A stretch of 64,000 nt of DNA from Sorghum bicolor (lineage: Eukaryota; Streptophyta; Magnoliopsida; Poales; Poaceae): the NCBI RefSeq assembly GCF_000003195.3, contig NC_012870.2:6998501-7062500 (forward strand). Direction: 5' to 3'. This document shows, piece after piece, positions 38,262 to 52,330 of this stretch. A model generated the notes under the pieces. It had not been told where the DNA came from. It searched no databases and worked only from the letters and a program-made list of their open reading frames with translations. Position numbers and translations under genes: made by a program. Numbering within the stretch: the stretch's first letter is position 1; each line of letters begins with the position of its first letter.

Positions 38262-39080
38262 ATAGGTAGGTAACAGATACTACCGTTATATGTTACTCAT
38301 TCATATCAGCCAGCTTAACTGTCGGAGACTCGGTCGTAACGACTTTTGTTAGTGGGGTCTGCATGGGCAAGTAAATCATAAACGATGGCATCATATGTTA
38401 CTTGTAGAAAGAAATCACAGAAGTAAATAATGCTCTTGGATGTACTACTATTACATGATGAATTGATGATGTTCCTCCAATTGATATATATATATATATA
38501 TACGTGGAATTGTGTTGAAATTATTAAGTTTATAAAAACAGGGGAGGCACGACGCTATTGAAATATGTGATTGGAGGAAAGAACAAGCAATAGAGAATGA
38601 AAGGTTAATTTGTAACCTCTATGTTTTTCCCCTTGAGCGGTGTGTTCAATCAATAATAACATTATATCTTGCTCGCTGGTAAAAGGTGACATATTGAGTG
38701 CATGTATCCTTGAGTAATCAACTGCATGCACCTAATAGGTCGATATTCGCCTTTGGATATTTTTTTATTCTCTTATACTCTCTACTGGTTATATAACTAG
38801 TAAGCTATCACAACTATCATATTTATGTAGCCTTCTTTATCATCACTAAGTATGGACATCACTTTTGTTGTGATTTCATGATTTAGTGATTGATAATCCA
38901 TTTGTTTGCTCGTGTTTTATAACTTGTAGATTGCATGGTTTAGGTTTTTAGTCTACTTGGTGTCTAGTGATTTATAGAGAGGGAACATGCATGTATGAGT
39001 GAAAAAATCACGATATTCATTATATGTCTCGTGATGGCTTAACAATTGTAACTAACGCACTCAAAATTTATTGATTTATA
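38262..39080. repeat. Tandem repeat array, copy A
   Basis: The start ('aggtaggtaacagatac... atgttactc... catatca') and later words ('caatcaataataac... ttata', 'gagtaatcaac', 'cattatatgtctcgtgatggcttaaca') recur in the same order in the block from 39081. This copy contains a (TA)n run at about 38487-38504. The period is about 830 bp; copies have diverged. Confidence 0.6.
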
Positions 39081-39796
39081 CGGCGAGCATGCATAGGTAG
39101 CAATATGTTACTCATATCAACTACAGCTCAATAGTAGGTGACTCACTTGTGTGTTTTTAATTAAGGAATTTATGTAGTTGGGGTAATGCATGAATGGGTA
39201 AATAAATAAGTAATGATGACGTTACATGTTAGCTATAAAAAATAATTCACACAAGTAAATAATGTTTTTAAATGTACGACTACATTAAATAATAATGTTC
39301 ATAGAATTGATGTATATACGAGTATCTATGTGAAACTATGTTGAACTTAGGTTGTGAAAAAAGATGCAATGGTAATTAGAGAAATGGAGTAGCAACAGAG
39401 AGGCGAAACTTTGGAATTTATGTTTCCTCGCTACTAGAGTGATGCATTCAATCAATAATAACCTTATACTTTTGCTCGAAAAATATGATATATTGACTGC
39501 ATGTATTACTGAGTAATCAACAACTACACCTATAGTTCAAATACGCACCTTTAGGTATTTCTTTATTCTTTAGAAGTCTATGTTGATTATACCATCTTAG
39601 TGTGTGTAGACACCGTAAATGTTATTTTGCATATAGAGTATCCTTCATCACCACTGAAAAGCATACATCACTTATATCATAATATCATACCATCTCACCA
39701 TGGATTAGCTAGTGTTCAACAATTCACTTATATCTAAAATAATTCACATATTCATTACATGTCTCATGATGTCTTAACAGTCAACAGCTAACTCAC
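39081..39796. repeat. Tandem repeat array, copy B, cut by the retrotransposon
   Basis: It follows copy A word for word with divergence ('tatacggcgagcatgcataggtag', 'ttcaatcaataataac', 'tcattacatgtctcatgatgtcttaaca'). It ends with the CTCAC target-site duplication (39792-39796) at the left LTR. Its natural continuation is at 52128. Confidence 0.65.
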
Positions 39797-40484
39797 TGTT
39801 GACACCGTTTTTGGGCACGTGTCTAGGATGGCAGGATAGGGTGGCAGTACGATGCGGGTTGCTGATGAGGATGGTTGCCGATGAGGGAGAGGTTGAATGT
39901 GACTAAGTCCACAGACAGTAATATGGTGCCGATGGCTGGATAAAAAGGTCTGCCGATGACTATGGCAAGAGGATTGCCGATGATGCAAAGGAGGAGTCCG
40001 GAAGCTGCCAGTTGTCATGTGGAGGAGTTTCGGTTTGTCACGAAGGATAGTTTTATTATTTCCTTAATTATTTGCATCGTTTTGTATACGGATTCCGTGT
40101 AATTTGGAATTCGAATTCTAATCGTGTCTGGTTGTAGCTCTTTGAGCAGGGTATAAATATAAACCCTAGGACCTTGTAATAATCAATCAAGAAATCAATC
40201 AAACACACGTTTTTACTCATATTCCAGCATCTACTTTTCGACGACTTCGTCATACTTTTTTCTTTTTATTACGAGTTCTTAGGAATTCGTCGACTTAAGC
40301 TCGGCGTGTTCTCGAGTTCCGCGTGAGTACCTCTTAGCCGTGACATCCGGGCGCATCGCTGTTGTCAGGACTAAAGTATTCGAGTTATCACCTTTGCCGA
40401 TAGCAAGGTCAAATCGGCTGGCACGCCTTAACGTTTGAATCGGGTATTAGCCCTTTGTGTTTGCAGATCAGTTTTACATCAACA
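39797..40484 (+). repeat. 5' LTR (688 bp)
   Basis: TG...CA ends within the inverted termini TGTTGA/TCAACA. A TATA box, TATAAATA, lies at 40152-40159. It contains six GCCGAT/ATCGGC words. Differences from the 3' LTR occur in 'ggatagggtgg', 'ccacagacag' and 'ttttacatc'. Confidence 0.95.
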
Positions 40485-40491
40485 CATCTTT

Positions 40492-40509
40492 TGGCACGCC
40501 CAGTGGGAC
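40492..40509 (+). other. Putative tRNA primer-binding site
   Basis: TGGCACGCCCAGTGGGAC starts 7 nt after the 5' LTR. The leading TGG would pair with a tRNA CCA end. The tRNA species is not assigned. Confidence 0.6.
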
Positions 40510-40530
40510 CGATTCAAGATCAAGATCAAC

Positions 40531-43500
40531 ATGTCGATCTCTGACCTCGATCAAGAGAACGTCATCCCCGTGACGGAGGCCAACCTCAAGGATGAGCAAA
40601 AGCAAGCTATTGCCCAAGCCATGGAAAAGTTCAAGCAGCAATGCCTGAGGTCTTTCAGCATAAACAGGAGCGGCGAAGTGGTCCAGAAAGATACACTGCC
40701 GGCACCACGGCAGGTCACCTTTGACGCCAATCCTGGCAAGCTTCAAGATATGGTTGACAATGCCATCAATCGAGCGTTGATTAACCAAGCTGGTGTACTG
40801 TCTAATACGGTTTTCAACGCCGTGGCAAGAACTTTCAAGGAAGGACAAATCCCGCCAGATTATGTGGGGCCCTCCCATCATCAGCCAACGGCACCAGAGG
40901 TCACGGCTCCATCGGCTGCCTTGACGAATGCAAGTGCACAGTCTGCCGTCCCTCCAAGTACATTGGGGACTACTGGTGCACTATCTATGCCGATGGCAAC
41001 CAACCCACAAATTTCAGTTGGGCAGCATAAACTGACAACAGATATGTTGGCATCGGCAATGTCAGGGTTGACTCTTCCTCCCAACTGGTGGGGTTATGGT
41101 ATGCCTCCAGAGTTGACGCCGGGAACATCACAAATAACTGACATGAGGGGCAAAACTCCTATGACATCGGCACCTCCCAATGCGCCGGTGAACCAGAGTC
41201 CTCGGTATACCACAACTACTACTGCAAGGCCTCACACTGGGAATCCTCAAGATTCAATGTTTCAGATGCCCAACGCATCGGCAGAGTCAATGCTGATGCA
41301 ACAGAGGCCTATGGCCCAGTCGGGGTATGTCAATTCAACGACGGTACCCAATTACCAATCATCGGCAGCACCTATGCCGATGAACGCTAATAATGGATGG
41401 CTTGGACAGCAAGCCTTTCCACAATCGCCCCAGCAGGGTTATCAGACTACAGGGTTCCAGCAAGGGCAGGTCTATCCCGGGTTCCAAGGTCAGGGGATTC
41501 CCAACCAGCCAATAAATTTTGGACAGCAACTCGGAGGACAGCCAATCGGTGGACAGCAGTTTGGTGGTCCGCAGATTGGAGGACAGGTGACCAATACAAT
41601 GTTCCATGCAGGTCACGTCCCGAACAGACACGTGGAGGTTCGCCACCAAGTGCCAGATCCGCAGCCGCCTCATCGGCAAGATGCCGATGCGTATTGGGCC
41701 GATAAGATTGCTGAAGTAATGAGGGAACAATTTGGGATAAAACCCAAAGTCAACACTTATTCTTATCGGACACCGTATCCTCCAGCGTATGATTTGATCC
41801 CGCTTCCACATCGGTACAAGGTACCGGATTTTACAAAGTTTTCCGGACAGGACGACACGTCAACCATGGAGCATGTCAACAGGTTCATTATTCAATGTGG
41901 AGAGGCTGGTAACAGGGACGAATTGAGGGTTCGTCTATTTTCATCATCATTGTCTGGATCGGCCTTTACTTGGTTCATATCATTACCTCCCGACTCAGTA
42001 ATTACTTGGGCCGATCTAGAGAAGCAATTCCACAAATACTTCTTCTCGGGGGTTCATGAGAAGAAGATCACCGACTTGGTCAAGTTGAGGCAACGTAATG
42101 ATGAGTCGGTTGAGGGATTTGTGCAGAGGATACGAGAGGTCAAGAATAAATGCTATAGCCTGGTTCTGGATGATCGGCAGCTAGCCGATTTGGCTTTCCA
42201 GGGTTTGTTGCCACATATCAGGGATAAGTATGCCTCTCAGGAGTTCGAAAGTTTAAGTCATTTGGTGCAGAGGATATCTGATCAAGACATCAAGCCTTTC
42301 GAGCCTAAGAGGGCATGGAATAAGAAAGTGTCATTTGTTGATGAAGCAACAAGCTCAGATTCCGATGAGGAACCAGTAATCGGTTTGGCAGAGTGGGTAA
42401 AAAACAAGAAGCCGATGTCTTGTCCTTTTGGGCAGAAGGAACCAGAGAAGTTTGCCTTTGACACCGCCAAGGCCGATAGGATATTTGACTTTCTACTTCA
42501 GGAAGGTCAAATCAAACTGTCACCTAACCACGTGATCCCATCGGCAGAAGAGTTGAAGAGGATGAGATATTGCAAGTGGCATAATGCAACTTCACATGAC
42601 ACCAACGAGTGCAAAGTATTCAGACAGCAGCTGCAATCGGCTATAGAGTCAGGGAGAATCAAGTTTGACAGTTCCAAAGCCCAGAAGCCGATGAAGATAG
42701 ACCAACATCCTTTCCCGACAAACATGTTGGATGCTAATGGGAAGGCTAAGGTCTTAACGTCGGAGACAGCTGAGAAGAGTGCATCGGTAGATCCTCAGCA
42801 TCAAGTTACTACTGCCGATGCAAGAAGTAAGGGCTTGGTCCGGGAAGGAACTAGCTCAGGAAGGCTTCCTCGATCTGGTATCGTCATAACTCATAGGAGG
42901 CCTCGAGAAAAATGGCAACAACGGGAAGATCGGTATCGGCACCAGCAGGAAGATTATCAACGGGAAGAAGAAAGACGCCGACAGGAGTGGAATCGGCACA
43001 GGGATCATTGGAATTGCCCATTCTTCATCCATTGTTGGGAGGAAAATATCAAGCTTCCTACTGTCAGAGACTGCCCTGAATGCAACGGTTATGATCGGTA
43101 CGATAGGAACGATCGGCGTTATCATGATGATGAACGGCGAGCTAATGGGCCGATCAGAGGAAGGGTGTCAGTTCATGACCGGCTGGGGGGCAGATTCAGT
43201 GGGCACAACAGACTTAGTGACCGTGTCCAGTATTTTCCCAGGAACCAAGAGGAGCTCGAAGGAATGGCTGATGCGCGGGTTCCCGATGAATTCATATTTT
43301 GCAGGGATGCTAACACGCATCGCATGGAGTCAAGGGAGAACCGACGCCCGACGGCAAGGCAAAGGCCACTTCCTCTATGGTGCCCTCGAGGATTAACCAA
43401 GACACAGAAAAGGAGATTGCAACGAGAAAGGCAAGAGGAGCTAAACAAGGGAGAGAACTCTGGAAGTCGGCAGCCGTCAGACACTAAGAGGGAAGGTCCA

Positions 43501-44178
43501 TCGGCAGGCGTCAACATGGTCTTCATGTTGCCGATGGAGTTTCTTGCACCAGCCAGTGACGATGAGTTGGAATTTTCTGATCAGATAGCTCAGTTGGCTC
43601 TGGATCCGATGACGGCTATCTTTGAGAAACCTGCCGATGACGAGAGGCAGCATCTTAAAGCTTTATTCCTCAAAGGGAGGGTTGATGGGCCGCCAATGAC
43701 CAAGATCCTAGTTGATGGTGGAGCTGCTATTAATATTATGCCGTATGCAGTATATCGGAAGCTTGGGAAAGGGGATCAAGATTTGACCAAGACCGATATG
43801 ATGCTCAAAGACTTTGAAGGAAACGTGCCTCCAGTCAAGGGGGCGATATGTGCAGAGTTGACCATCGGCAGCAAAACCTTGCCGACAACTTTTTTCGTGA
43901 TCAGCGGAAAAGGTGCCTACAATTTATTATTGGGGAGATATTGGATTCATGCCAATTGTTGTGTCCCATCTACAATGCATCAGTGCTTGGTTCAGTGGGT
44001 AGGTGACAAGATTGAGATCGTCCCAGGAGATTCTTCTTATGTTATCGCATCGGTAGAAGCGGATACTTACGAAAGGACCAGGTGCATTTCAGGAGAAGCT
44101 TGGGAGAAAGATTTTCTCAAAGTTGCCGATTATGAGATTCCACCGATCCAAGCAGTCGGTTCTGACGACGGTTTTTAA
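40531..44178 (+). CDS. gag-pro: Retrotransposon Gag-protease polyprotein
   Basis: 1,215 aa from the ATG at 40531. An in-frame ATG at 40435 lies inside the LTR and is unlikely. The N-terminal third is Pro/Gln/Gly/Met-rich and disordered. The retrotransposon Gag domain lies at about 430-535 (FTKFSGQDDT...RLFSSSLSGSAFTWF). A zinc-knuckle-like CKWHNATSHDTNEC lies at about 680, and a highly basic Arg-rich region at about 790-960. The aspartic protease is near 1058, with ILVDGGAAINIMP, so the active site reads DGG rather than D-S/T-G. Its TAA stop shares one base with the pol ATG. It forms the virus-like particle of the element. Confidence 0.95.
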   Translation: MSISDLDQENVIPVTEANLKDEQKQAIAQAMEKFKQQCLRSFSINRSGEVVQKDTLPAPRQVTFDANPGKLQDMVDNAINRALINQAGVLSNTVFNAVARTFKEGQIPPDYVGPSHHQPTAPEVTAPSAALTNASAQSAVPPSTLGTTGALSMPMATNPQISVGQHKLTTDMLASAMSGLTLPPNWWGYGMPPELTPGTSQITDMRGKTPMTSAPPNAPVNQSPRYTTTTTARPHTGNPQDSMFQMPNASAESMLMQQRPMAQSGYVNSTTVPNYQSSAAPMPMNANNGWLGQQAFPQSPQQGYQTTGFQQGQVYPGFQGQGIPNQPINFGQQLGGQPIGGQQFGGPQIGGQVTNTMFHAGHVPNRHVEVRHQVPDPQPPHRQDADAYWADKIAEVMREQFGIKPKVNTYSYRTPYPPAYDLIPLPHRYKVPDFTKFSGQDDTSTMEHVNRFIIQCGEAGNRDELRVRLFSSSLSGSAFTWFISLPPDSVITWADLEKQFHKYFFSGVHEKKITDLVKLRQRNDESVEGFVQRIREVKNKCYSLVLDDRQLADLAFQGLLPHIRDKYASQEFESLSHLVQRISDQDIKPFEPKRAWNKKVSFVDEATSSDSDEEPVIGLAEWVKNKKPMSCPFGQKEPEKFAFDTAKADRIFDFLLQEGQIKLSPNHVIPSAEELKRMRYCKWHNATSHDTNECKVFRQQLQSAIESGRIKFDSSKAQKPMKIDQHPFPTNMLDANGKAKVLTSETAEKSASVDPQHQVTTADARSKGLVREGTSSGRLPRSGIVITHRRPREKWQQREDRYRHQQEDYQREEERRRQEWNRHRDHWNCPFFIHCWEENIKLPTVRDCPECNGYDRYDRNDRRYHDDERRANGPIRGRVSVHDRLGGRFSGHNRLSDRVQYFPRNQEELEGMADARVPDEFIFCRDANTHRMESRENRRPTARQRPLPLWCPRGLTKTQKRRLQRERQEELNKGENSGSRQPSDTKREGPSAGVNMVFMLPMEFLAPASDDELEFSDQIAQLALDPMTAIFEKPADDERQHLKALFLKGRVDGPPMTKILVDGGAAINIMPYAVYRKLGKGDQDLTKTDMMLKDFEGNVPPVKGAICAELTIGSKTLPTTFFVISGKGAYNLLLGRYWIHANCCVPSTMHQCLVQWVGDKIEIVPGDSSYVIASVEADTYERTRCISGEAWEKDFLKVADYEIPPIQAVGSDDGF

Positions 44179-47100
44179 TGGATAGATTCGCCGATGATGG
44201 AAAATTAGGCCAGGGATTCACATCGGCCGATGATTTGGTAGAAGTAGATATTGGTAGTGGTGATAAGCCTAGGCCTACTTTTATTAGTGCTAAATTAGAT
44301 CCTGAGAGTAAGCGACAATTGATTAGTTTGTTAAAGGAATATAAAGATTGCTTTGCTTGGGATTATACAGAGATGCCTGGTTTAGACCGATCAATTGTCG
44401 AACATCGGTTACCCATCAAGTCTGGATTTCGGCCACATCAGCAACCAGCCCGCCGATGTAATCCTAACATTCTACCTGATATTAAGGCCGAAATCACTAA
44501 ACTTATTGAAGCTAAGTTTATTCGGCAGTGTCGGTATGCCGAATGGATTTCCAATGTTGTTCCGGTTTACAAGAAGAACGGGAAGCTTCGGGTGTGCATT
44601 GATTTCAGGAATCTCAATAAAGCTACACCGATGGATGGATACCCAATGCCTGTCGCCGATCTACTGGTTGATGCTGCGGCTGGCCATCGGGTCATCAGCT
44701 TCATGGATGGTAATGCAGGTTACAATCAAATATTCATGGCAGAGGAGGATATTCCAAAAACCGCATTCAGGTGTCCTGGTCATGTTGGACTATTTGAATG
44801 GATAGTCATGACTTTTGGGTTAAAGAATGCTGGTGCTACTTATCAAAGGGCTATGAATTTTATATTTCATGAGTTCATCGGCAAGCTCGTAGAGATTTAT
44901 ATTGATGATGTGGTGGTTAAGTCTGGAGATTTCTCAAAGCATCTTGCCGATTTACGAAAAGTGTTGGAGTGCACAAGGAAGCATGGATTGAAGATGATTC
45001 CCAACAAGTGTGCATTTGGCGTATCGGCAGGGCAGTTTCTTGGTTTCATGGTACATCAGAGGGGTATTGAAATTAGTCGAAGATCTATTGATGCCATCAA
45101 TAAAATAGTGGCCCCTACCAATAAAACCGAGCTCCAATCCTTGATCGGCAAGGTGAATTTTATCAGAAGATTTATATCGAATTTATCTGGGAGGATTCGT
45201 GCTTTCAGTCCTCTTCTTAAATTGAAAGCCGATCAAGAGTTTGTTTGGGGAGAAGAACAGCAGCTGGCTCTGGATGAAATCAAGAAGTATCTAGTAAATC
45301 CTCCAGTTTTAGTTCCACCTCAACAAGGGAAGCCCTTCAAATTGTATTTATCTACCGATGGATCGGTTATCGGTTCAGCTTTAGTTCAAGAATTTGAAGG
45401 GAAAGAGAGGGTAATTTATTATTTGAGTAGGAGGTTGATTGATGCTGAAACCAGGTATTCGGCCATTGAGAAACTGTGCTTATGCTTATATTTTTCATGT
45501 ATCAAGCTGAGACATTCCCTGTTATCGGCCGAATGTGCTGTTGTTTGCAAAGATGACGTGGTCCGATACATGCTATCTATGCCGATTATGAGTGGTAGGA
45601 TCGGTAAATGGATTTTAGCGCTGTCGGAGTTCGATTTGCGTTACGAATCGGTTAAGGCAGTCAAGGGGCAGATTATGGCCGATTTTGTGACTCAGCATTG
45701 CGGTCTAGTGGAAACCTTGGAAATTGCACCCTGGACGCTCTTCTTTGATGGATCTACCTGTGACCGGGGGGCAGGAATCGGCATTGTATTAGTTTCTCCT
45801 AAGGGGAGGAAGTATGAGTTTTCCTTGCCGATTGTTGCTACATCAACAAATAATCAGGCTGAGTATCAAGCTCTGATCAAGGGATTGGAGTTGTTAAGAG
45901 AAGTTCGTGCTGATGCTGTTGAAATATTCGGGGATTCTATGTTGGTTATAAATCAATTGGCCGGAAGCTATGAATGCCGAAGTGAAGTTCTCATAACCTA
46001 TTTCGAGAGAAGTATGCAACTGTTAAAGGAATTCAAGGACTTCCGATTGGAGCATGTTCCCCGATTGCATAATGAAGACGCTAATCGGTTAGCTCAGCAT
46101 GCCTCGGGATATCAGCCAATGATTAATGCGACATCGGCAGTCGGTGCCGGTGATTGGAGGAAAGAAATTATTGATTATCTAAAAGATCCATCCAAAAAAG
46201 TTGAAAGACGGGTTCGATTTCAGGCAACCAAGTATGTGCTCCTTGAAAATGAATTATATTATCGAACTATCGACGGAATTCTTCTCCGATGCTTGGGTGA
46301 TGATGAAGCCAGAAGTTTGATGGGGGAAATCCATGAAGGAGTGTGTGGAGCGCATCAGTCAGCTTTTAAGATGAAGTGGATGATTCGAAGGAATGGATAT
46401 TTTTGGCCAACCATACTTGAAGATTGTTTTAAATATTTCAAGGGATGTCAAGGTTGTCAAAAGTTCGGTAATATCCAGAGAGCACCCGCATCGGCTATGA
46501 ATCCTATAATAAAACCTTGGCCGTTCCGGGGATGGGCCATCGATCTGATCGGCCAGATTTATCCACCATCTAGCAAAGGGCATAAGTTCATTCTAGTTGC
46601 CACTGACTATTTCACTAAGTGGGTCGAAGCTATTCCTTTGAAGAAAGTCACATCGGCCAATATGGTTGATTTTGTGAAGGAGCATATTATTTACCGATTT
46701 GGGATTCCCCAGACGATTACTACCGATCAGGGCACCATGTTCACGTCGGGGGAGTTCGATGAATTCGCAATCGGTATGGGAATTAAAGTGTTGAATTCTT
46801 CTCCTTATTATGCTCAAGCCAATGGGCAGGCCGAAGCGTCTAACAAAGGAATTATCAAGCTTATTAAACGAAAGATTGAAGAAAATCCTAGGCGGTGGCA
46901 TACATCATTAAATGAAGCATTGTGGTCTTATCGGATGGCTTGTCATGGATCGACCAAGGTATCACCCTATCAATTGGTGTATGGACATGATGCCGTGTTG
47001 CCTTGGGAAATTAAGGCTGGATCTAGGCGATTATCTCTTCAAGATCAATTAACTTCCGACAATTATGCCACTTTGATGACCGATGAATTGGATGATCTAG

Positions 47101-47411
47101 CAGGGCATCGGTTAAAAGCTTTAATGAGTATAGAAGAAAATAAGAAAAGAGTTGCTAGATGGTATGATAAGAAAGTGAAGGCTAAAGAGTTTGCCGATGG
47201 GGATTTGGTATGGAAATTAATTTTACCAGTTGGGACCAAGAGCTCGAAGTTTGGAAAGTGGTCTCCTAATTGGGAGGGTCCTTATCGGATAAGTCGATCG
47301 GCTCCTGGTAATGCCTACATTCTAGAAACCCTCGAAGGAATTGAATTTCCCAGAGCATTAAACGGCAAATATTTAAAGAAGTACTACCCCAGTATATGGG
47401 TCGATGCATAA
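44178..47411 (+). CDS. pol: Retrotransposon Pol polyprotein (RT, gypsy RNase H, archaeal-type RNase H, integrase)
   Basis: 1,077 aa in the -1 frame relative to gag, starting at the ATG of a TAATG overlap. Reverse transcriptase spans about 90-300 with the catalytic YIDD near 240. The gypsy RNase H (about 385-490) includes YLSTDGSVIGSAL. A second, archaeal-type RNase H starts near 520 (LFFDGSTCDRGAGIGIVL; acidic residues in FDG, QAEY, FGDS and NEDAN all present). Integrase follows: an HHCC zinc finger near 712-750 (H...H...CQGC) and a DDE core, with Asp in AIDLIG, Asp in TTDQGT and Glu in QAEASNK. No internal stop or frameshift was found. Confidence 0.96.
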   Translation: MDRFADDGKLGQGFTSADDLVEVDIGSGDKPRPTFISAKLDPESKRQLISLLKEYKDCFAWDYTEMPGLDRSIVEHRLPIKSGFRPHQQPARRCNPNILPDIKAEITKLIEAKFIRQCRYAEWISNVVPVYKKNGKLRVCIDFRNLNKATPMDGYPMPVADLLVDAAAGHRVISFMDGNAGYNQIFMAEEDIPKTAFRCPGHVGLFEWIVMTFGLKNAGATYQRAMNFIFHEFIGKLVEIYIDDVVVKSGDFSKHLADLRKVLECTRKHGLKMIPNKCAFGVSAGQFLGFMVHQRGIEISRRSIDAINKIVAPTNKTELQSLIGKVNFIRRFISNLSGRIRAFSPLLKLKADQEFVWGEEQQLALDEIKKYLVNPPVLVPPQQGKPFKLYLSTDGSVIGSALVQEFEGKERVIYYLSRRLIDAETRYSAIEKLCLCLYFSCIKLRHSLLSAECAVVCKDDVVRYMLSMPIMSGRIGKWILALSEFDLRYESVKAVKGQIMADFVTQHCGLVETLEIAPWTLFFDGSTCDRGAGIGIVLVSPKGRKYEFSLPIVATSTNNQAEYQALIKGLELLREVRADAVEIFGDSMLVINQLAGSYECRSEVLITYFERSMQLLKEFKDFRLEHVPRLHNEDANRLAQHASGYQPMINATSAVGAGDWRKEIIDYLKDPSKKVERRVRFQATKYVLLENELYYRTIDGILLRCLGDDEARSLMGEIHEGVCGAHQSAFKMKWMIRRNGYFWPTILEDCFKYFKGCQGCQKFGNIQRAPASAMNPIIKPWPFRGWAIDLIGQIYPPSSKGHKFILVATDYFTKWVEAIPLKKVTSANMVDFVKEHIIYRFGIPQTITTDQGTMFTSGEFDEFAIGMGIKVLNSSPYYAQANGQAEASNKGIIKLIKRKIEENPRRWHTSLNEALWSYRMACHGSTKVSPYQLVYGHDAVLPWEIKAGSRRLSLQDQLTSDNYATLMTDELDDLAGHRLKALMSIEENKKRVARWYDKKVKAKEFADGDLVWKLILPVGTKSSKFGKWSPNWEGPYRISRSAPGNAYILETLEGIEFPRALNGKYLKKYYPSIWVDA

Positions 47412-47515
47412 AAGTTTAGGTGCCGATAACACTCCTATCGGCTGGAGCCAAATGCTTGGGGACAGAACTTGGTGTTTCAAAAGTTTAGGCGCCGATAACA
47501 GTCCTATCGGCTAGA

Positions 47516-50500
47516 CTAAAAGTTGAGGATAGCCGATATAGCACGTACCCGAATTTGGTTGGCTGCTTCTATCTCCTTGATGTCGTCATCGGCAGAACCT
47601 TCTATCGGCTTTAGCTTCTTCTTCAGTTGGAGTGCCTTGCGACCATGAACATTTCGCTCGTGCTCAAGAAGCCTGATGGTCTCTGGCAATTGGTTCTCTT
47701 CCTGTTGGGCTTGGGATAAGGCGTTCTCCACTTCCTTGAGTTCTGCCAACAGGGATTCTCTTCTTGCCGATAGATCGGATATCTTCTGCTTCAGCGCATC
47801 TCCTGAAGATTTCAGGATACCGATGTTCTTGTGCTTCTCATCGGTCAGGAGTTTCTCTTTCCTCATTTCATCGGAGAGTTGAGTTTGAGCGGCTCTATCG
47901 GCAAGACGCCGAGAAGCTCTCTGGTACTGCAGCTGGCGACTCTCCAGATGAGCGGCTTGGAACAGGATTTCTTCGACGTCGGCTGGGATTTGGCCTCTGA
48001 GAGTTCTGAACAGGGTCTTGGTAGGGTCGGAGTCATCGACCAAATGCGCTGTATCCTGGTGAAGGAGAACTGACAATTCTTCCAGCCTGGCCCTGGTCTC
48101 TGCCGATGTAATGCCAACTGTCTGGGAAGAACTTGCTTCTTCGCCTTCTTCTTCAGAGAGATCGATGGCGAAGGAAAACAGGCTATCAGGAGAATCTTGT
48201 TCCTGGGAGGGAAAGCAAGGTTAGCTCATATTCGGAGAATCGGCAAATGGTGCTGGCGGTAAACAGTGACTTACTTGCTTCAAGGCGATCTCTTGCCTTG
48301 GACTGGGAGGTGCTGACGGAGCTGCGGACTGACTGGCCAAAGATGCCGATGGAACTGCAGGTTGATCGGCTAAGGTTGCCGATGGGACGATATCGATTGA
48401 AAGAAGACAAGAAAGGTTATGAGACTAAATGAGAATGAGTTCATCGGCAACGGTATTGTTAAAGTGTGTTACCTGGAGGGGGAACAACGGTTGTCTGAAT
48501 CGGGAGAGCCGCCGGTGATATAATTGGACCCACCGGACCAGTTGCTTGTTCACCCACATCAACTGATGTACTTTCTGTTTGAGGCTCTTCCTGCTGGGAT
48601 TCTTCCATCTGTGGTGCATCCTGCATTGGTTGGGGAGATGGCACTTGCTGTGTCTGGACTTCTGGAGAAGAAGGAGAAGATTCTACTGGGATTGGAGATA
48701 CCGGAGGAGGAGGGGGAGCTGCCACTTTTTGGCGTTTCGTTTCGGCCCTGGTGCTCTTGACACCCTTCCTCTTTGGCTGGCTGGACTGGGTGGCATCGGC
48801 ACCTTGAAGTGTGACCTTTGCCGATGCACTGGTTTGCTGCAATAACGAACAAGGGTTTGTAAGTATAAATAAAGCCGATATAAAGATAGTCAGCGTAAAA
48901 AAAATAGAGATTTGACAAATTGCCTTGAAAGCCCGCGCCAGAGTGGGAGCAGCTACCGTTGGTGATGTCTGGGTTCTCCTGGTAGTAACTTTCCTGAGGC
49001 GCGCACCCCGATGCACGATGGAAGCCAGAGTGGGAGCATTGTGGCCGATTGAGGAAATCGGGCCTGATGGAAACAAGTCGATCGGTTTGCCACTCCTGCT
49101 AACAATGGAGGAATATTGTCAACCTGCAAAAGGAATACAAGGGTAAGCTGCCGATAGAAGTAATAGTGAGAAAATGAAACGTTAGTTTGAGTTACTTACA
49201 GTGTCATCGGGAACTTCGTATTCGGGGTCAATCATGCCGCGGTATGAAAGTGCCGATCTGCAGAATAGATGCTCTTTCCATTCTGCCCACCATAACTTGT
49301 ATGCCTGAGTGATAAAAGCAGCCGGAACCCATTCTGACAGATTTACATCTACATCGGCATTTGGTGGTAGTTGGGCTACTCGGGTCCACTCAAGAAGATT
49401 GTTGATGGTTTCTCTGGGTTTTATCACATCGGCATAAGGAAGTGCAATCGGCAACTGGCCGAAAGCTAACTGGCGAGCTAATGCCGATGGATTGTAAAAT
49501 TCGTAAGTCTGGGGAGAAGTTTTCGTGCTACCGAAGAAATTCACTGGAATGGCTCTGGGAGTCACAATTGCTATCATCGCCTCATTGTCCCTGTCGAGAG
49601 CTTCATCAAATGGATTGAAGGTCAGAGGGAGCATGCTATCTGGGTCATCATAAGCCAGCCATGGTCGTTCATCTCTGGCCAGACCCTCATACAGAGTCTC
49701 GAAGAATCGGCCGATCTGATCCGGATTGTTCCCTGAACCGGGTAAGACTATAACGGCTTCGCCAAAGTTCAAGGGGGCACGCGTTGCCGATTCCTCTTCA
49801 CCCAACACATGATTTTCGGCTATATCTCTTGGGAAGTGCTGTGAGAACAAGTTGAAATCAAGGCGCTTATGCAGGTGCAGATTGAGCCACATATTAATAA
49901 ACCACCAGGGGCCTCCCAAGTTGCCGATGGATTGGCCAAGCAGGAGTTTCTGGGCTACCTGATGAAGAAGGTGGTAAACAACGCTGAGCAAATATCGGCC
50001 GAGAGGAAATTGGCCACCGTTAGCCAGTCTTTCTGCTGCCGATAGATAGACAGAAGTCGGTCCTGCCGATCGACCACAGAATACGAACTTGTCCAGCCAC
50101 ATGTTCAGAAAGGTGGTTTGCTCCTTTATGGTGACAGGCCCTCTCCCGCGGTACTTCTGGATGTACCCTGACCAACCGCCGATAGCGCGAGTCTCCACTT
50201 TGGCACTGGGGGCAGTATCAAAAAAGTGGGTGCTATCGGCAGAAGATATATCTAGCCCAGTGAGCATGGCTACATCGGCAAGGGTAGGAGAAGCAGGGCC
50301 GTGGCCAAAAACAAAAGCATTGAGAGTGTCTGACCAAAAGTAGGATGCAACTATCAGCAGTGATTCGTTCCTGTGCATATCGGCAATGGATAGCCTAATG
50401 CATTAGGCTAGCTTCCTCTCACCCCACTGGACTTCATAAGAATTGCTGACCCTCAAGAACCAGTCTTTCCACCCTACGGTAGGACTGGGCCAAGAGCGAA

Positions 50501-50795
50501 AAGTGTCTTTCCATAGATCTACAGAAAAGTTTTCAGCCCTAAAGGGGATTCTATTGGTTTCTGCGTTGATGAGATTGGTTGGATCTGAATCCCCTAGAGG
50601 ACCGAGGCATTGAAGGTGTGGTTGATCGGTGGGGATGACAATTTTATTGGACAACTCCTAGTGATTTTGGGGGAATAAAAACACAAAGAAAAAGGAAAAG
50701 GAGAATATTCAGTAAGATGAATCGCGGATGAATAGGAATATACACAGAAGATGAGATGGGAGTCTGACCTCAGGGACGACGAAGCCAATGGCCAT
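47516..50795 (-). pseudogene. Antisense six-exon plant mobile domain (PMD) gene carried by the retrotransposon, broken in this copy
   Basis: Opposite to gag/pol, exons fit by splice sites and phase: 50769-50795, 49200-50657, 48924-49123, 48473-48836, 48275-48369 and 47516-48202, about 940 codons. Exon 2 holds a plant mobile domain (aminotransferase-like family), with motifs WPSPTVGWKDWF, ASYFWSDTLNAFVFGHG, TLADVAMLTGLDI and GPWWFINMWLNLHLHKR. Then come a basic stretch, a Pro/Gln-rich linker and a C-terminal coiled coil (last exon). A TATA box (TATAAATAG) at 50944-50952 sits about 150 bp upstream of the ATG. Intron 3 has a GC donor. Two lesions: an in-frame TAA at 50403-50405, and a 1-nt frame slip near 49097-49100 (exon 3 is 200 nt where 201 keeps phase). 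Additional antisense ORFs are known in Tat-lineage elements; host PMD proteins such as MAIL1 and MAIN act in transposon silencing. Function here is unknown. Confidence 0.8.
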
Positions 50796-50943
50796 CTTGT
50801 CGTGAAGAGGACGTTGGAGGGCACCGGAGTTGATGAAGAGGAGTGCTTGTCGGAGATCTTGAAGGTTGTAAATGGCGCCGCCGCTGGAAAAGCAAAGTTG
50901 GATAGTAGAATGGTGTGATGGGGGAGGAGTACCCAAGAAGGAA

Positions 50944-50952
50944 CTATTTATA
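50944..50952 (-). promoter_or_regulatory. TATA box of the antisense PMD gene
   Basis: TATAAATAG on the minus strand, followed by a CT/CA-rich leader and the ATG at 50795. This is a textbook plant core promoter, positioned to transcribe against gag/pol. Confidence 0.6.
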
Positions 50953-51420
50953 GGACAAGATGGGCAAGGGCAAATCCGACTTATCTCTTTGCCGCATCCG
51001 AGAAGCCCGAGGGTACTCAGGTGGATATGGTAACTGTTCGCACGGTAATCCAGGGATTGTGCAGGTGATTTGACGGGAAGCGGTCATTATCTGAAGATAT
51101 TTTACTGTGCGAGATCTCCTGGTCGGTCCATCGGCGATATTCTATAACGGTCATCTTGCCGATGGGCGGATAGAGGGGAGGTAACCGTTTTTACGAATAT
51201 CCTGGTCAGAGCATCGGCAGATCTTTGTAACGGTATTGTTGCCGATGTACGACCAAGAAAGATGCCCGTTTAGGAAGTTGGGGATTTCGAGGAATCTGCG
51301 GAGGATTAGGATCAGAGTTGTCCAGATTGAGGTTGTCGGTTACCAGATTAGGAGCATTAATTGCGGAGAAGGCATCATTACTGCAGAGAATTTCGGAGCA
51401 TTAATAGTTTTATACTCCGA

Positions 51421-51434
51421 AACTGGGGGGCATG
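51421..51434 (+). other. Polypurine-tract region of the retrotransposon
   Basis: AACTGGGGGGCATG lies directly before the 3' LTR. The G6 run would prime plus-strand synthesis, though the last bases are not purely purine. Confidence 0.6.
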
Positions 51435-52122
51435 TGTTGACACCGTTTTTGGGCACGTGTCTAGGATGGCAGGATATGGTGGCAGTACGATGCGGGTTGC
51501 TGATGAGGATGGTTGCCGATGAGGGAGAGGTTGAATGTGACTAAGTCCACAGGCAGTAATATGGTGCCGATGGCTGGATAAAAAGGTCTGCCGATGACTA
51601 TGGCAAGAGGATTGCCGATGATGCAAAGGAGGAGTCCGGAAGCTGCCAGTTGTCATGTGGAGGAGTTTCGGTTTGTCACGAAGGATAGTTTTATTATTTC
51701 CTTAATTATTTGCATCGTTTTGTATACGGATTCCGTGTAATTTGGAATTCGAATTCTAATCGTGTCTGGTTGTAGCTCTTTGAGCAGGGTATAAATATAA
51801 ACCCTAGGACCTTGTAATAATCAATCAAGAAATCAATCAAACACACGTTTTTACTCATATTCCAGCATCTACTTTTCGACGACTTCGTCATACTTTTTTC
51901 TTTTTATTACGAGTTCTTAGGAATTCGTCGACTTAAGCTCGGCGTGTTCTCGAGTTCCGCGTGAGTACCTCTTAGCCGTGACATCCGGGCGCATCGCTGT
52001 TGTCAGGACTAAAGTATTCGAGTTATCACCTTTGCCGATAGCAAGGTCAAATCGGCTGGCACGCCTTAACGTTTGAATCGGGTATTAGCCCTTTGTGTTT
52101 GCAGATCAGTTTTGCATCAACA
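51435..52122 (+). repeat. 3' LTR (688 bp)
   Basis: Identical to the 5' LTR except at three positions. TATAAATA is at 51790-51797. It is followed by CTCAC, the target-site duplication. Confidence 0.95.
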
Positions 52123-52127
52123 CTCAC

Positions 52128-52330
52128 TCAAAAATTAATGAGTTATGCGGCGAGCATGCATAGGTAGGCAACATATATTGTATGTCTCTCATATCAACTA
52201 GCTCAATAGTTGGTGACTCACTTGTGTATTTTAATTAATGAATTTTATGTAGTGGGGTGTGCATAAATGGGCTAGTAAATCAGTAATGATGGTGTCACAT
52301 GTTAGCTATAGAAAAAAATCACATAAATAG
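52128..52330. repeat. Tandem repeat array, copy C (truncated)
   Basis: It resumes the array after the retrotransposon: 'atgcggcgagcatgcataggtagg', 'catatcaactagctcaatagttggtgactcacttgtg' and 'agtaatgatggtgtcacatgttagctata' match copy B at 39081-39240. Similarity fades near 52330. Confidence 0.65.

What the first reader, a model, noticed from the sequence alone, without database searches (positions are those of the whole stretch)
39797..52122. Whole retrotransposon is saturated with the hexamer GCCGAT/ATCGGC
By hand count, roughly 100 copies of GCCGAT or its reverse complement fall in 12.3 kb, where about 6 are expected for a random hexamer. The other 52 kb of the window has fewer than ten. 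Copies occur in both LTRs (six each), gag (about 29), pol (about 25), the antisense gene and its introns, and non-coding spacers. They appear in both orientations and in all three reading frames (Ala-Asp, Ile-Gly, Ser-Ala and Pro-Met contexts), so codon bias does not explain them. The common extended form is TGCCGATG/CATCGGCA. An evenly spread motif across a transposon recalls VANDAL elements, whose VANC proteins bind short motifs dense in their own DNA to undo silencing. I infer that an element-encoded protein (antisense PMD protein, Gag or integrase) or a host factor reads this motif.
Basis: partly seen in the sequence, partly recalled or inferred. Interest (0 to 1): 0.88.

Follow-up and report, generated by a model that had tools for sequence, protein, structure and literature searches.

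The report
Retrotransposon saturated with its own DNA word
A sorghum-like plant jumping gene carries the same six-letter DNA word about 100 times throughout its genes and spacers, and natural selection appears to keep it there, as if a protein reads it to recognise the element; a second family carries a different word.

Summary
Element 39797-52122 (a young Tat-clade Ty3/gypsy retrotransposon with an antisense PMD gene) has 102 GCCGAT/ATCGGC against 5.6 expected; the other 51.7 kb has 13. One-mismatch neighbours lie near background, except ACCGAT. Synonymous codon shuffles average 5.9/3.9/3.0 sites where gag/pol/PMD carry 29/21/16. In related copies 226 of 316 sites are kept, against 447 of 1267 other NNCGNN words. 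Synonymous positions inside the motif are kept in 379 of 405 cases, 317 expected. Differing sites arose mostly by point substitution. From proteins alone, GCCGAT ranks first of 2080 hexamers in pooled Oryza and pooled metagenomic relatives, not in Lolium or Rubroshorea. A second family, with an antisense Transposase_28 gene, has its own dispersed, conserved word, SSTCGA. I conclude that selection at DNA level maintains family-specific words. The likeliest reader is the element's antisense PMD protein, which is under purifying selection. Binding is not shown. It would work like VANC self-recognition, but lies mainly in coding DNA, in both orientations, in a retrotransposon.

The parts
39797..52122 (+). 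Whole Tat-clade Ty3/gypsy LTR retrotransposon holding 102 GCCGAT/ATCGGC sites
39792..39796 (.). Target-site duplication CTCAC, left copy (right copy 52123-52127)
   Evidence: sequence output; duplication read by eye
39797..40484 (+). 5' LTR, six motif sites, the first four at 39877, 39928, 39952, 39976
40531..44178 (+). gag-protease ORF, 29 motif sites in all three frames
   Evidence: Pfam PF03732, PF13975 (the protease match lies below Pfam's cut-off)
44166..47411 (+). pol ORF (RT, RNase H, second RNase H, integrase), 21 motif sites
47412..47515 (.). Spacer between pol stop and antisense gene stop with four sites (47422+, 47437-, 47491+, 47506-)
47516..48220 (-). Antisense gene, 3'-most ORF (coiled-coil-like by eye), six sites; matched in copies of sample A (84%) and sample B (68%)
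48459..49118 (-). Antisense ORF with a basic, NLS-like stretch (by eye) and a proline-rich part, four sites; probably interrupted by introns
49124..49199 (-). Likely intron of the antisense gene (GTAAGT...TTTTGCAG) holding the motif site at 49150
   Evidence: sequence, splice sites read by eye; site
49182..50402 (-). Antisense ORF encoding plant mobile domain (PF10536), 16 motif sites; candidate reader of the motif
   Evidence: E 1.3e-15; dN/dS 0.08-0.10
51435..52122 (+). 3' LTR, six motif sites

Best explanation
RCCGAT (mostly TGCCGATG) is a double-stranded DNA recognition site that the element keeps at about eight copies per kb over its whole length, coding sequence included, because a sequence-specific DNA-binding protein must coat or mark the element's own DNA. 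The most likely reader is the protein made from the element's antisense gene (PMD domain, basic NLS-like stretch, coiled-coil-like end; apparently spliced). Bound all along the element, it would set its chromatin state, most plausibly by countering silencing of its own copies as VANC proteins do for VANDAL transposons. Each family uses its own word, so each protein acts only on its own kind. Shown: density, sharpness, DNA-level constraint, turnover, a second family with a second word, and purifying selection on the PMD protein. Inferred: that a protein binds the word, that it is the PMD protein, that it is nuclear, and that the effect is anti-silencing.
For: Enrichment of 102 against 5.6; of the 18 one-mismatch neighbours 17 occur 1-12 times (expected 3.2-8.5; the highest ratio among them is GCCGAA, 11 against 5.5) and only ACCGAT stands out, 28 against 5.1. 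Synonymous shuffles never reach the counts in 1000 tries for gag, pol and PMD. Conservation: 226 of 316 sites kept against 447 of 1267 NNCGNN words; in truly non-coding stretches 25 of 31 against 49 of 118; in copies not found through the motif 101 of 134 against 253 of 488. Synonymous third positions 379 of 405 kept against 316.8 expected. Even orientations and sites in introns and spacers point to DNA and not RNA. GCCGAT ranks first in pooled protein-only inference for Oryza and for metagenomic relatives while most positions differ in the distant ones. A second family with a TRP28 antisense gene has another conserved word. PMD dN/dS is 0.08-0.10, and 94 of the 102 scored genomic PMD copies (the window's own among them) have no stop inside the match.
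Against: No binding, expression or methylation data. LTR sites are not clearly better kept than other CpG words (11 of 16 against 93 of 155). One relative, L012, kept only 13 of 34. By fraction kept GCCGAT is 17th of 1035 hexamers; it has 182 sites, while the 15 higher words that were printed have 10-29 each. One metagenomic Gag relative, P0022, gives no GCCGAT signal (rank 533). Word and accessory-gene type were paired in only two families. Whether Oryza relatives with the signal carry PMD, and whether the Lolium relatives without it do, is unknown. In the second family the single word CCTCGA does not exceed synonymous shuffles; only the degenerate SSTCGA does, and not in the TRP28 ORF. No preferred site spacing that would suggest a dimer. 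The PMD model was unusable (pLDDT 40).
Confidence: 0.5

Rival explanations
1. The word is a DNA site, but its reader is another element protein (Gag or integrase binding cDNA in the particle or pre-integration complex) or a host factor. The element keeps the sites for cDNA packaging, nuclear import, integration or transcription.
For: All DNA-level evidence applies equally. The same core TGCCGATGG is the subterminal repeat of an unrelated CACTA-type transposon in this genome, which could mean a shared host factor, or coincidence.
Against: A second retrotransposon family in the same host uses a different word, which a single host factor does not explain. Gag and integrase domains are general to LTR elements, while three other pol-bearing stretches sampled here have no dominant word (best z 3.6-6.4).
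Confidence: 0.33
2. The word acts in RNA: packaging signals, or pairing of GCCGAU with AUCGGC across the genomic RNA.
For: Both complementary words are abundant on the sense strand (55 and 47), so pairing is possible.
Against: Wobble-tolerated variants (GTCGAT, GCTGAT, GCCGGT) are near background (8, 11, 4; expected 5.3, 8.1, 3.2). Sites occur also in apparent antisense introns. A protein reading one RNA strand would not favour both orientations.
Confidence: 0.07
3. Host transcription factor sites of DRE/CRT kind (RCCGAC; recalled) giving stress-responsive transcription.
For: RCCGAT differs from RCCGAC at one base; four sites lie in the first 185 bp of the LTR.
Against: RCCGAC occurs 13 times in the element and GCCGAC 4 times against 3.4 expected. 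Promoter sites would not be needed throughout gag and pol.
Confidence: 0.04
4. Neutral leftover: mutation bias, short-insert expansion or codon/amino-acid preference.
For: A 69-bp spacing of site pairs at 47422-47511 shows that local duplication does occur; in the second family codon and GC bias explain part of the excess.
Against: Synonymous shuffles, conservation above other words, and 54 differing sites of which 4 involve gaps and 33 differ by one base.
Confidence: 0.03

Closest known systems
VANDAL transposons and VANC anti-silencing proteins (Arabidopsis; PMC5735166 and PMC10398659, passages seen)
   Same: A short word concentrated in one TE family and rare elsewhere; related families with different words; an element-encoded accessory protein beside it.
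   Different: VANC words sit mainly in non-coding tandem repeats, same orientation, spread by tandem duplication, in Mutator-like DNA transposons. Here the words sit mainly in codons, in both orientations, change mostly by substitution, in an LTR retrotransposon. Binding and demethylation are shown for VANC, not here.
Retand/Tat retrotransposons with antisense ORFs (PMC11963269 abstract and passages; PMC6317226 passages)
   Same: Tat pol with additional RNase H between RNase H and integrase; long pol-3'LTR region with antisense gene; antisense TRP28 predicted to bind DNA (PMC11963269); PMD and TRP28 known as extra domains of Ogre and Retand (PMC6317226).
   Different: The passages I saw mention tandem repeats but no dispersed family-specific word.
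DNA uptake sequences of Neisseria and Haemophilus (recalled)
   Same: A short word dispersed over coding and non-coding DNA, both orientations, used for recognising own DNA.
   Different: Bacterial chromosomes, uptake receptor, roughly one per kb (recalled); here about eight per kb in a mobile element.
CACTA subterminal repeats (L002, L006 here; TNPA binding recalled)
   Same: Same core TGCCGATGG, many copies, both orientations.
   Different: Within a few hundred bp of an end, non-coding by appearance, a DNA transposon.

Membership tests
Tat clade of Ty3/gypsy (Ogre/Retand) | Additional RNase H domain between RNase H and integrase | tested here: met
   RT_RNaseH 388-489, RVT_3 527-646, Integrase_H2C2 714-767, rve 786-882; criterion from PMC6317226
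[quoted passage not shown]
   PMD ORF 49182-50402 minus strand; criterion for Retand from PMC11963269
Retand as against Ogre | TRP28 (Retand) or PMD (Ogre) as the prominent extra domain | tested here: inconclusive
   PMD found; no TRP28 match in the five ORFs scanned; PMC6317226 links PMD to 57% of Ogre and TRP28 to 23% of Retand elements; no phylogeny was built
VANDAL/VANC anti-silencing system | Mutator-like DNA transposon encoding a VANC protein | tested here: not met
   LTR retrotransposon with PMD
VANDAL/VANC anti-silencing system | Short motif dense in the family, rare elsewhere | tested here: met
   1.8-13.1 per aligned kb in nine stretches of relatives, 6 or more in seven of them; 0.26 per kb outside the intact copy in sample A
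VANDAL/VANC anti-silencing system | Motifs in non-coding tandem repeats, same orientation | tested here: not met
VANDAL/VANC anti-silencing system | Accessory protein binds the motif and removes methylation | not testable with these tools
   needs DAP-seq/EMSA and methylomes
DRE/CRT host promoter element (recalled) | RCCGAC core enriched | tested here: not met
   GCCGAC 4 (3.4 expected); RCCGAC 13, no expectation computed for the degenerate form

The most novel reading that the evidence does not exclude
Grass Tat retrotransposons carry family-specific DNA barcodes written into their whole sequence, codons included, and each family's antisense-encoded PMD or TRP28 protein reads its own barcode to mark and de-silence its own copies. 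This would be a self/non-self code of retrotransposons that evolves by point substitution under selection.
Probability: 0.4. Interest if true: 0.95.

Novelty: new variant of a known kind. Interest (0 to 1): 0.86.

Why it matters
Antisense PMD and TRP28 genes of abundant plant retrotransposons have no established function (PMC11963269 and PMC6317226, passages). A sharp word under selection gives them a concrete, cheap test (bind or not bind). It would extend sequence-specific self-recognition by transposons from VANDAL DNA transposons of Arabidopsis to the large retrotransposons of grass genomes. It also shows a DNA-level signal strong enough to shape the amino-acid sequence of gag and pol.

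Tried and rejected
Codon bias, amino-acid preference and base composition: rejected for the window family. RNA pairing: disfavoured, since wobble variants are near background. DRE/CRT: not supported. Tandem expansion as the main source: not supported. Regular spacing or dimer spacing: not found.

Led nowhere: viral-contig scans with pol and with a primer-site pattern (no relative). AlphaFold model of PMD, pLDDT 40, so no fold search was run. L036, a Transposase_28 locus without a pol, gag or PMD match in 4 kb, has only GCC-repeat and AT-rich words on top. Protein-only inference for the second family's Gag is too weak (CCTCGA rank 84). Local CACCGGACGC and CGACCA clusters in the samples lie within a few hundred bp and were set aside. 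The listing of PMD matches in the genome was not followed up. Literature: search listings (15 of 81 listed; 10 of 112 listed; 12 of 138 listed); none of the listed titles or abstract starts concerned this word. Passages of PMC11728184 and PMC12844716 raise encoded modulators of methylation for LTR elements, and report locally reduced CG methylation in sunflower Retand, but no such word.

Rows dropped: the turnover comparison used 23 of 40 Gag relatives. The first pooled inference left out P0022, P0038 and P0040; one search repeats it with all 40. DNA conservation used 5 loci and 9 stretches. By their coordinates the 9 stretches come from about seven copies: L010 and L011 are adjacent halves of one, and B 76-81 kb and B 93-97.5 kb seem to be halves of another split by a nested insertion. 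L010-L014 were found by a pattern that contains the word twice, which favours copies that keep it; therefore gives the unselected copies apart. In one search the class 'other' mixed true non-coding DNA with the two smaller antisense ORFs; one search separates them. The 5-locus total is 123 of 182 and 125 of 182, which count alignment gaps differently. The CACTA loci L001-L003 and L005-L008 and L015 have no blastn alignment to the element. In one search six stretches were profiled; one (A 38939-47191) had no strong word (best z 5.0).
Full report
WHAT IS THERE. The window lies at C1:6998501-7062500 of a 709-Mb genome. The contig sizes fit Sorghum bicolor; that name is recalled, not given by a tool. 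The element at 39797-52122 has LTRs of 688 bp with 3 differences, a CTCAC duplication read by eye, a gag-protease ORF, a pol ORF with RT, RNase H, a second RNase H and integrase, and an antisense ORF with a plant mobile domain (PF10536, E 1.3e-15). The antisense gene has GT-AG introns that can be read by eye, a basic NLS-like stretch and a coiled-coil-like end (by eye). The order RNase H - second RNase H - integrase is that of Ogre and Retand in PMC6317226 (passages), which reports PMD in 57% of Ogre and Transposase_28 in 23% of Retand elements. I therefore call it a Tat-clade element and leave the subclade open.

THE WORD. There are 102 GCCGAT/ATCGGC in the element and 13 in the other 51.7 kb. 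A dinucleotide model expects 5.6. Of the 18 one-mismatch neighbours, ACCGAT stands out (28, expected 5.1); the other 17 occur 1 to 12 times with 3.2 to 8.5 expected, the highest ratio being GCCGAA (11 against 5.5). So the word is T-R-CCGAT-G with a hard core. Orientation is even (55/47), spacing is random-like, and all frames are used. Shuffling synonymous codons gives on average 5.9, 3.9 and 3.0 sites in gag-PR, pol and PMD against 29, 21 and 16 observed; the maxima of 1000 shuffles are 14, 9 and 8. The protein sequences permit the word at 54, 43 and 20 places, and 29, 21 and 16 of these carry it. Whole-codon shuffles give fewer sites (2.6, 2.2, 1.0) than synonymous ones, so the amino-acid sequence itself also leans towards the word.

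SELECTION, NOT INHERITANCE ALONE. A pattern with two copies of the word led to five loci (four copies; L010 and L011 are halves of one) with mean identities of 0.76 to 0.85 to the window element. They keep 123 of 182 aligned sites, while hexamers with ten or more sites are kept at 0.31 on average (1035 words) and CpG words at 0.37. Sixteen words have a higher fraction; the 15 of them that were printed have 10-29 sites each. By locus: L010 30/36, L011 24/31, L013 30/44, L014 26/37, L012 13/34. Because that pattern favours copies with the word, one search also scores the four stretches from two pericentromere samples that were taken without regard to it: 101 of 134 sites kept, against 253 of 488 for other NNCGNN words. 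For all nine stretches: 226 of 316 against 447 of 1267; in gag, pol and PMD 179 of 244 against 295 of 877; in non-coding DNA 25 of 31 against 49 of 118; in the two smaller antisense ORFs 11 of 25 against 10 of 117; in LTRs 11 of 16 against 93 of 155, which is no clear difference. Third codon positions inside the motif are unchanged in 379 of 405 cases where the amino acid is the same; the same codons elsewhere predict 316.8. The copies are related to one another, so the sites are not independent events. Lost sites most often become ACCGAT (21), GCTGAT (16) or GCCAAT (9); 22 differ at several bases. Of 54 sites present in a relative but not in the window, 4 involve gaps and 33 differ by one base: the sites come and go mostly by substitution.

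FAR RELATIVES, FROM PROTEIN ALONE. A Gag search returned 40 proteins. I scored all 2080 canonical hexamers for how well each protein's residue order permits them, against shuffled proteins. GCCGAT ranks first for the window Gag, 5th for Pol and 13th for PMD. With all 40 relatives: pooled rank 1 for eight metagenome-type proteins (7 of 8 have it in their top ten; P0022 ranks 533); pooled rank 1 for 17 Oryza proteins (16 of 17; ranks vary a little between runs, 14 of 17); pooled rank 65 for 12 Lolium proteins (1 of 12); pooled rank 676 for three Rubroshorea proteins (0 of 3). Positions are mostly not shared with the window in the more distant ones: P0010 has 35 signature peptides where 19.6 are expected, 8 of them shared; P0007 has 32 (15.5 expected), 6 shared (23 of the 40 proteins). 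The signature peptides also exceed expectation in some Lolium proteins, where arginine-containing peptides account for much of it, so the hexamer ranking is the better guide. Density is kept while places change, at roughly half identical aligned residues.

A SECOND FAMILY, A SECOND WORD. Two 100-kb samples hold further copies of this family (98 sites in the copy at C1:35062556-35074916) and a second one. Element C1:35078382-35091048 encodes gag, an RT and an antisense Transposase_28 protein (PF04195, E 5.5e-15). It lacks the GCCGAT excess but has CCTCGA 75 times (15.2 expected). Related stretches at C5 have 63 (12.2), 70 (13.8) and 41 (8.0). The pattern is [CG][CG]TCGA, with positions 3-6 strict. 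Synonymous shuffles for SSTCGA: gag 43 against 25.1 (maximum 39), second antisense ORF 30 against 14.9 (maximum 27), TRP28 ORF 13 against 9.1, not significant; for CCTCGA alone the three ORFs (11, 5, 12) stay within the shuffles. At 81% identity the four SSTCGA words are kept in 114 of 188 cases (41/71, 24/42, 31/46, 18/29), the seven listed NNTCGA words without two S in 27 of 97, and other CpG words in 875 of 2892. Three other pol-bearing stretches have no comparable word (best z 3.6 to 6.4). So dense words are a family trait, and the words differ.

WHO READS IT. A strict core in both orientations, in codons, introns and spacers, with wobble variants near background, points to a protein reading double-stranded DNA (inference). 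The PMD protein is the best candidate. It is under purifying selection (dN/dS 0.08, 0.10 and 0.09 against three copies, the last two with saturated dS and two stops each; gag 0.13 and pol 0.09 against one copy). 94 of 102 scored copies in the genome have no stop within the match, though only the best 102 of 5329 candidates were scored. The second family pairs another antisense protein with another word. PMC11963269 (abstract and passages) predicts DNA binding for antisense TRP28. [quoted passage not shown] the motif's letters are not in the passages). None of this shows binding. PMD structure prediction failed.

WHAT IT WORKS LIKE. VANC21 binds a nine-base word dense in VANDAL21, and word density matters (PMC5735166, passages); VANC effects spread over the whole element including coding regions (PMC10398659, passages). 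The present case shares dense self-words and family-specific words, but fails the VANDAL definition (class of element, non-coding tandem repeats, one orientation). It may work like VANC; it is not a VANDAL.

LIMITS. One genome at DNA level; two families; related copies; no binding, expression or methylation data; an unknown accessory gene in the Oryza and Lolium relatives. The literature searches cover only the open library named, several with capped listings.

Noticed in passing
L006:1438-1860, L002:1170-1620 (also L001, L003, L005, L007, L008 by word counts): An unrelated CACTA-type DNA transposon family (end CACTACCGG, read by eye in L006) has subterminal repeats TTTGCCGATGGC/GCCATCGGCAAA, the same core word as the retrotransposon. 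Shared reader or coincidence is unknown.
   Followed up: partly
C1:35058289-35058784, C1:35093653-35094083, C5:30047002-30047317 and 30054618-30054933 (tiles L021, L025, L030, L031): Short arrays of CACCGGACGC in both orientations, dense within about 300-500 bp and otherwise sparse; at C5 within a 2.4-kb direct repeat at 99.7% identity.
   Followed up: partly
L024:226-4144 (C1:35080226-35084144): The second family's antisense gene has the same plan as the PMD gene: N-terminal domain (TRP28), basic charged stretch, long coiled-coil-like end (by eye).
   Followed up: partly
window 47422-47511: Two copies of a GCCGATAGGA(C/G)TGTTATCGGC unit 69 bp apart in the spacer between the pol stop and the antisense stop: a small local duplication of paired sites.
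   Followed up: no
window 39055-39251 and 52122-52323: Sequences flanking the element on both sides share a direct repeat of about 200 bp (82% identity), so it seems to sit between two older repeat copies.
   Followed up: no
L036 (C10:4602600-4606599): A Transposase_28 ORF with no pol, gag or PMD match in 4 kb; possibly a host-kept gene.
   Followed up: no
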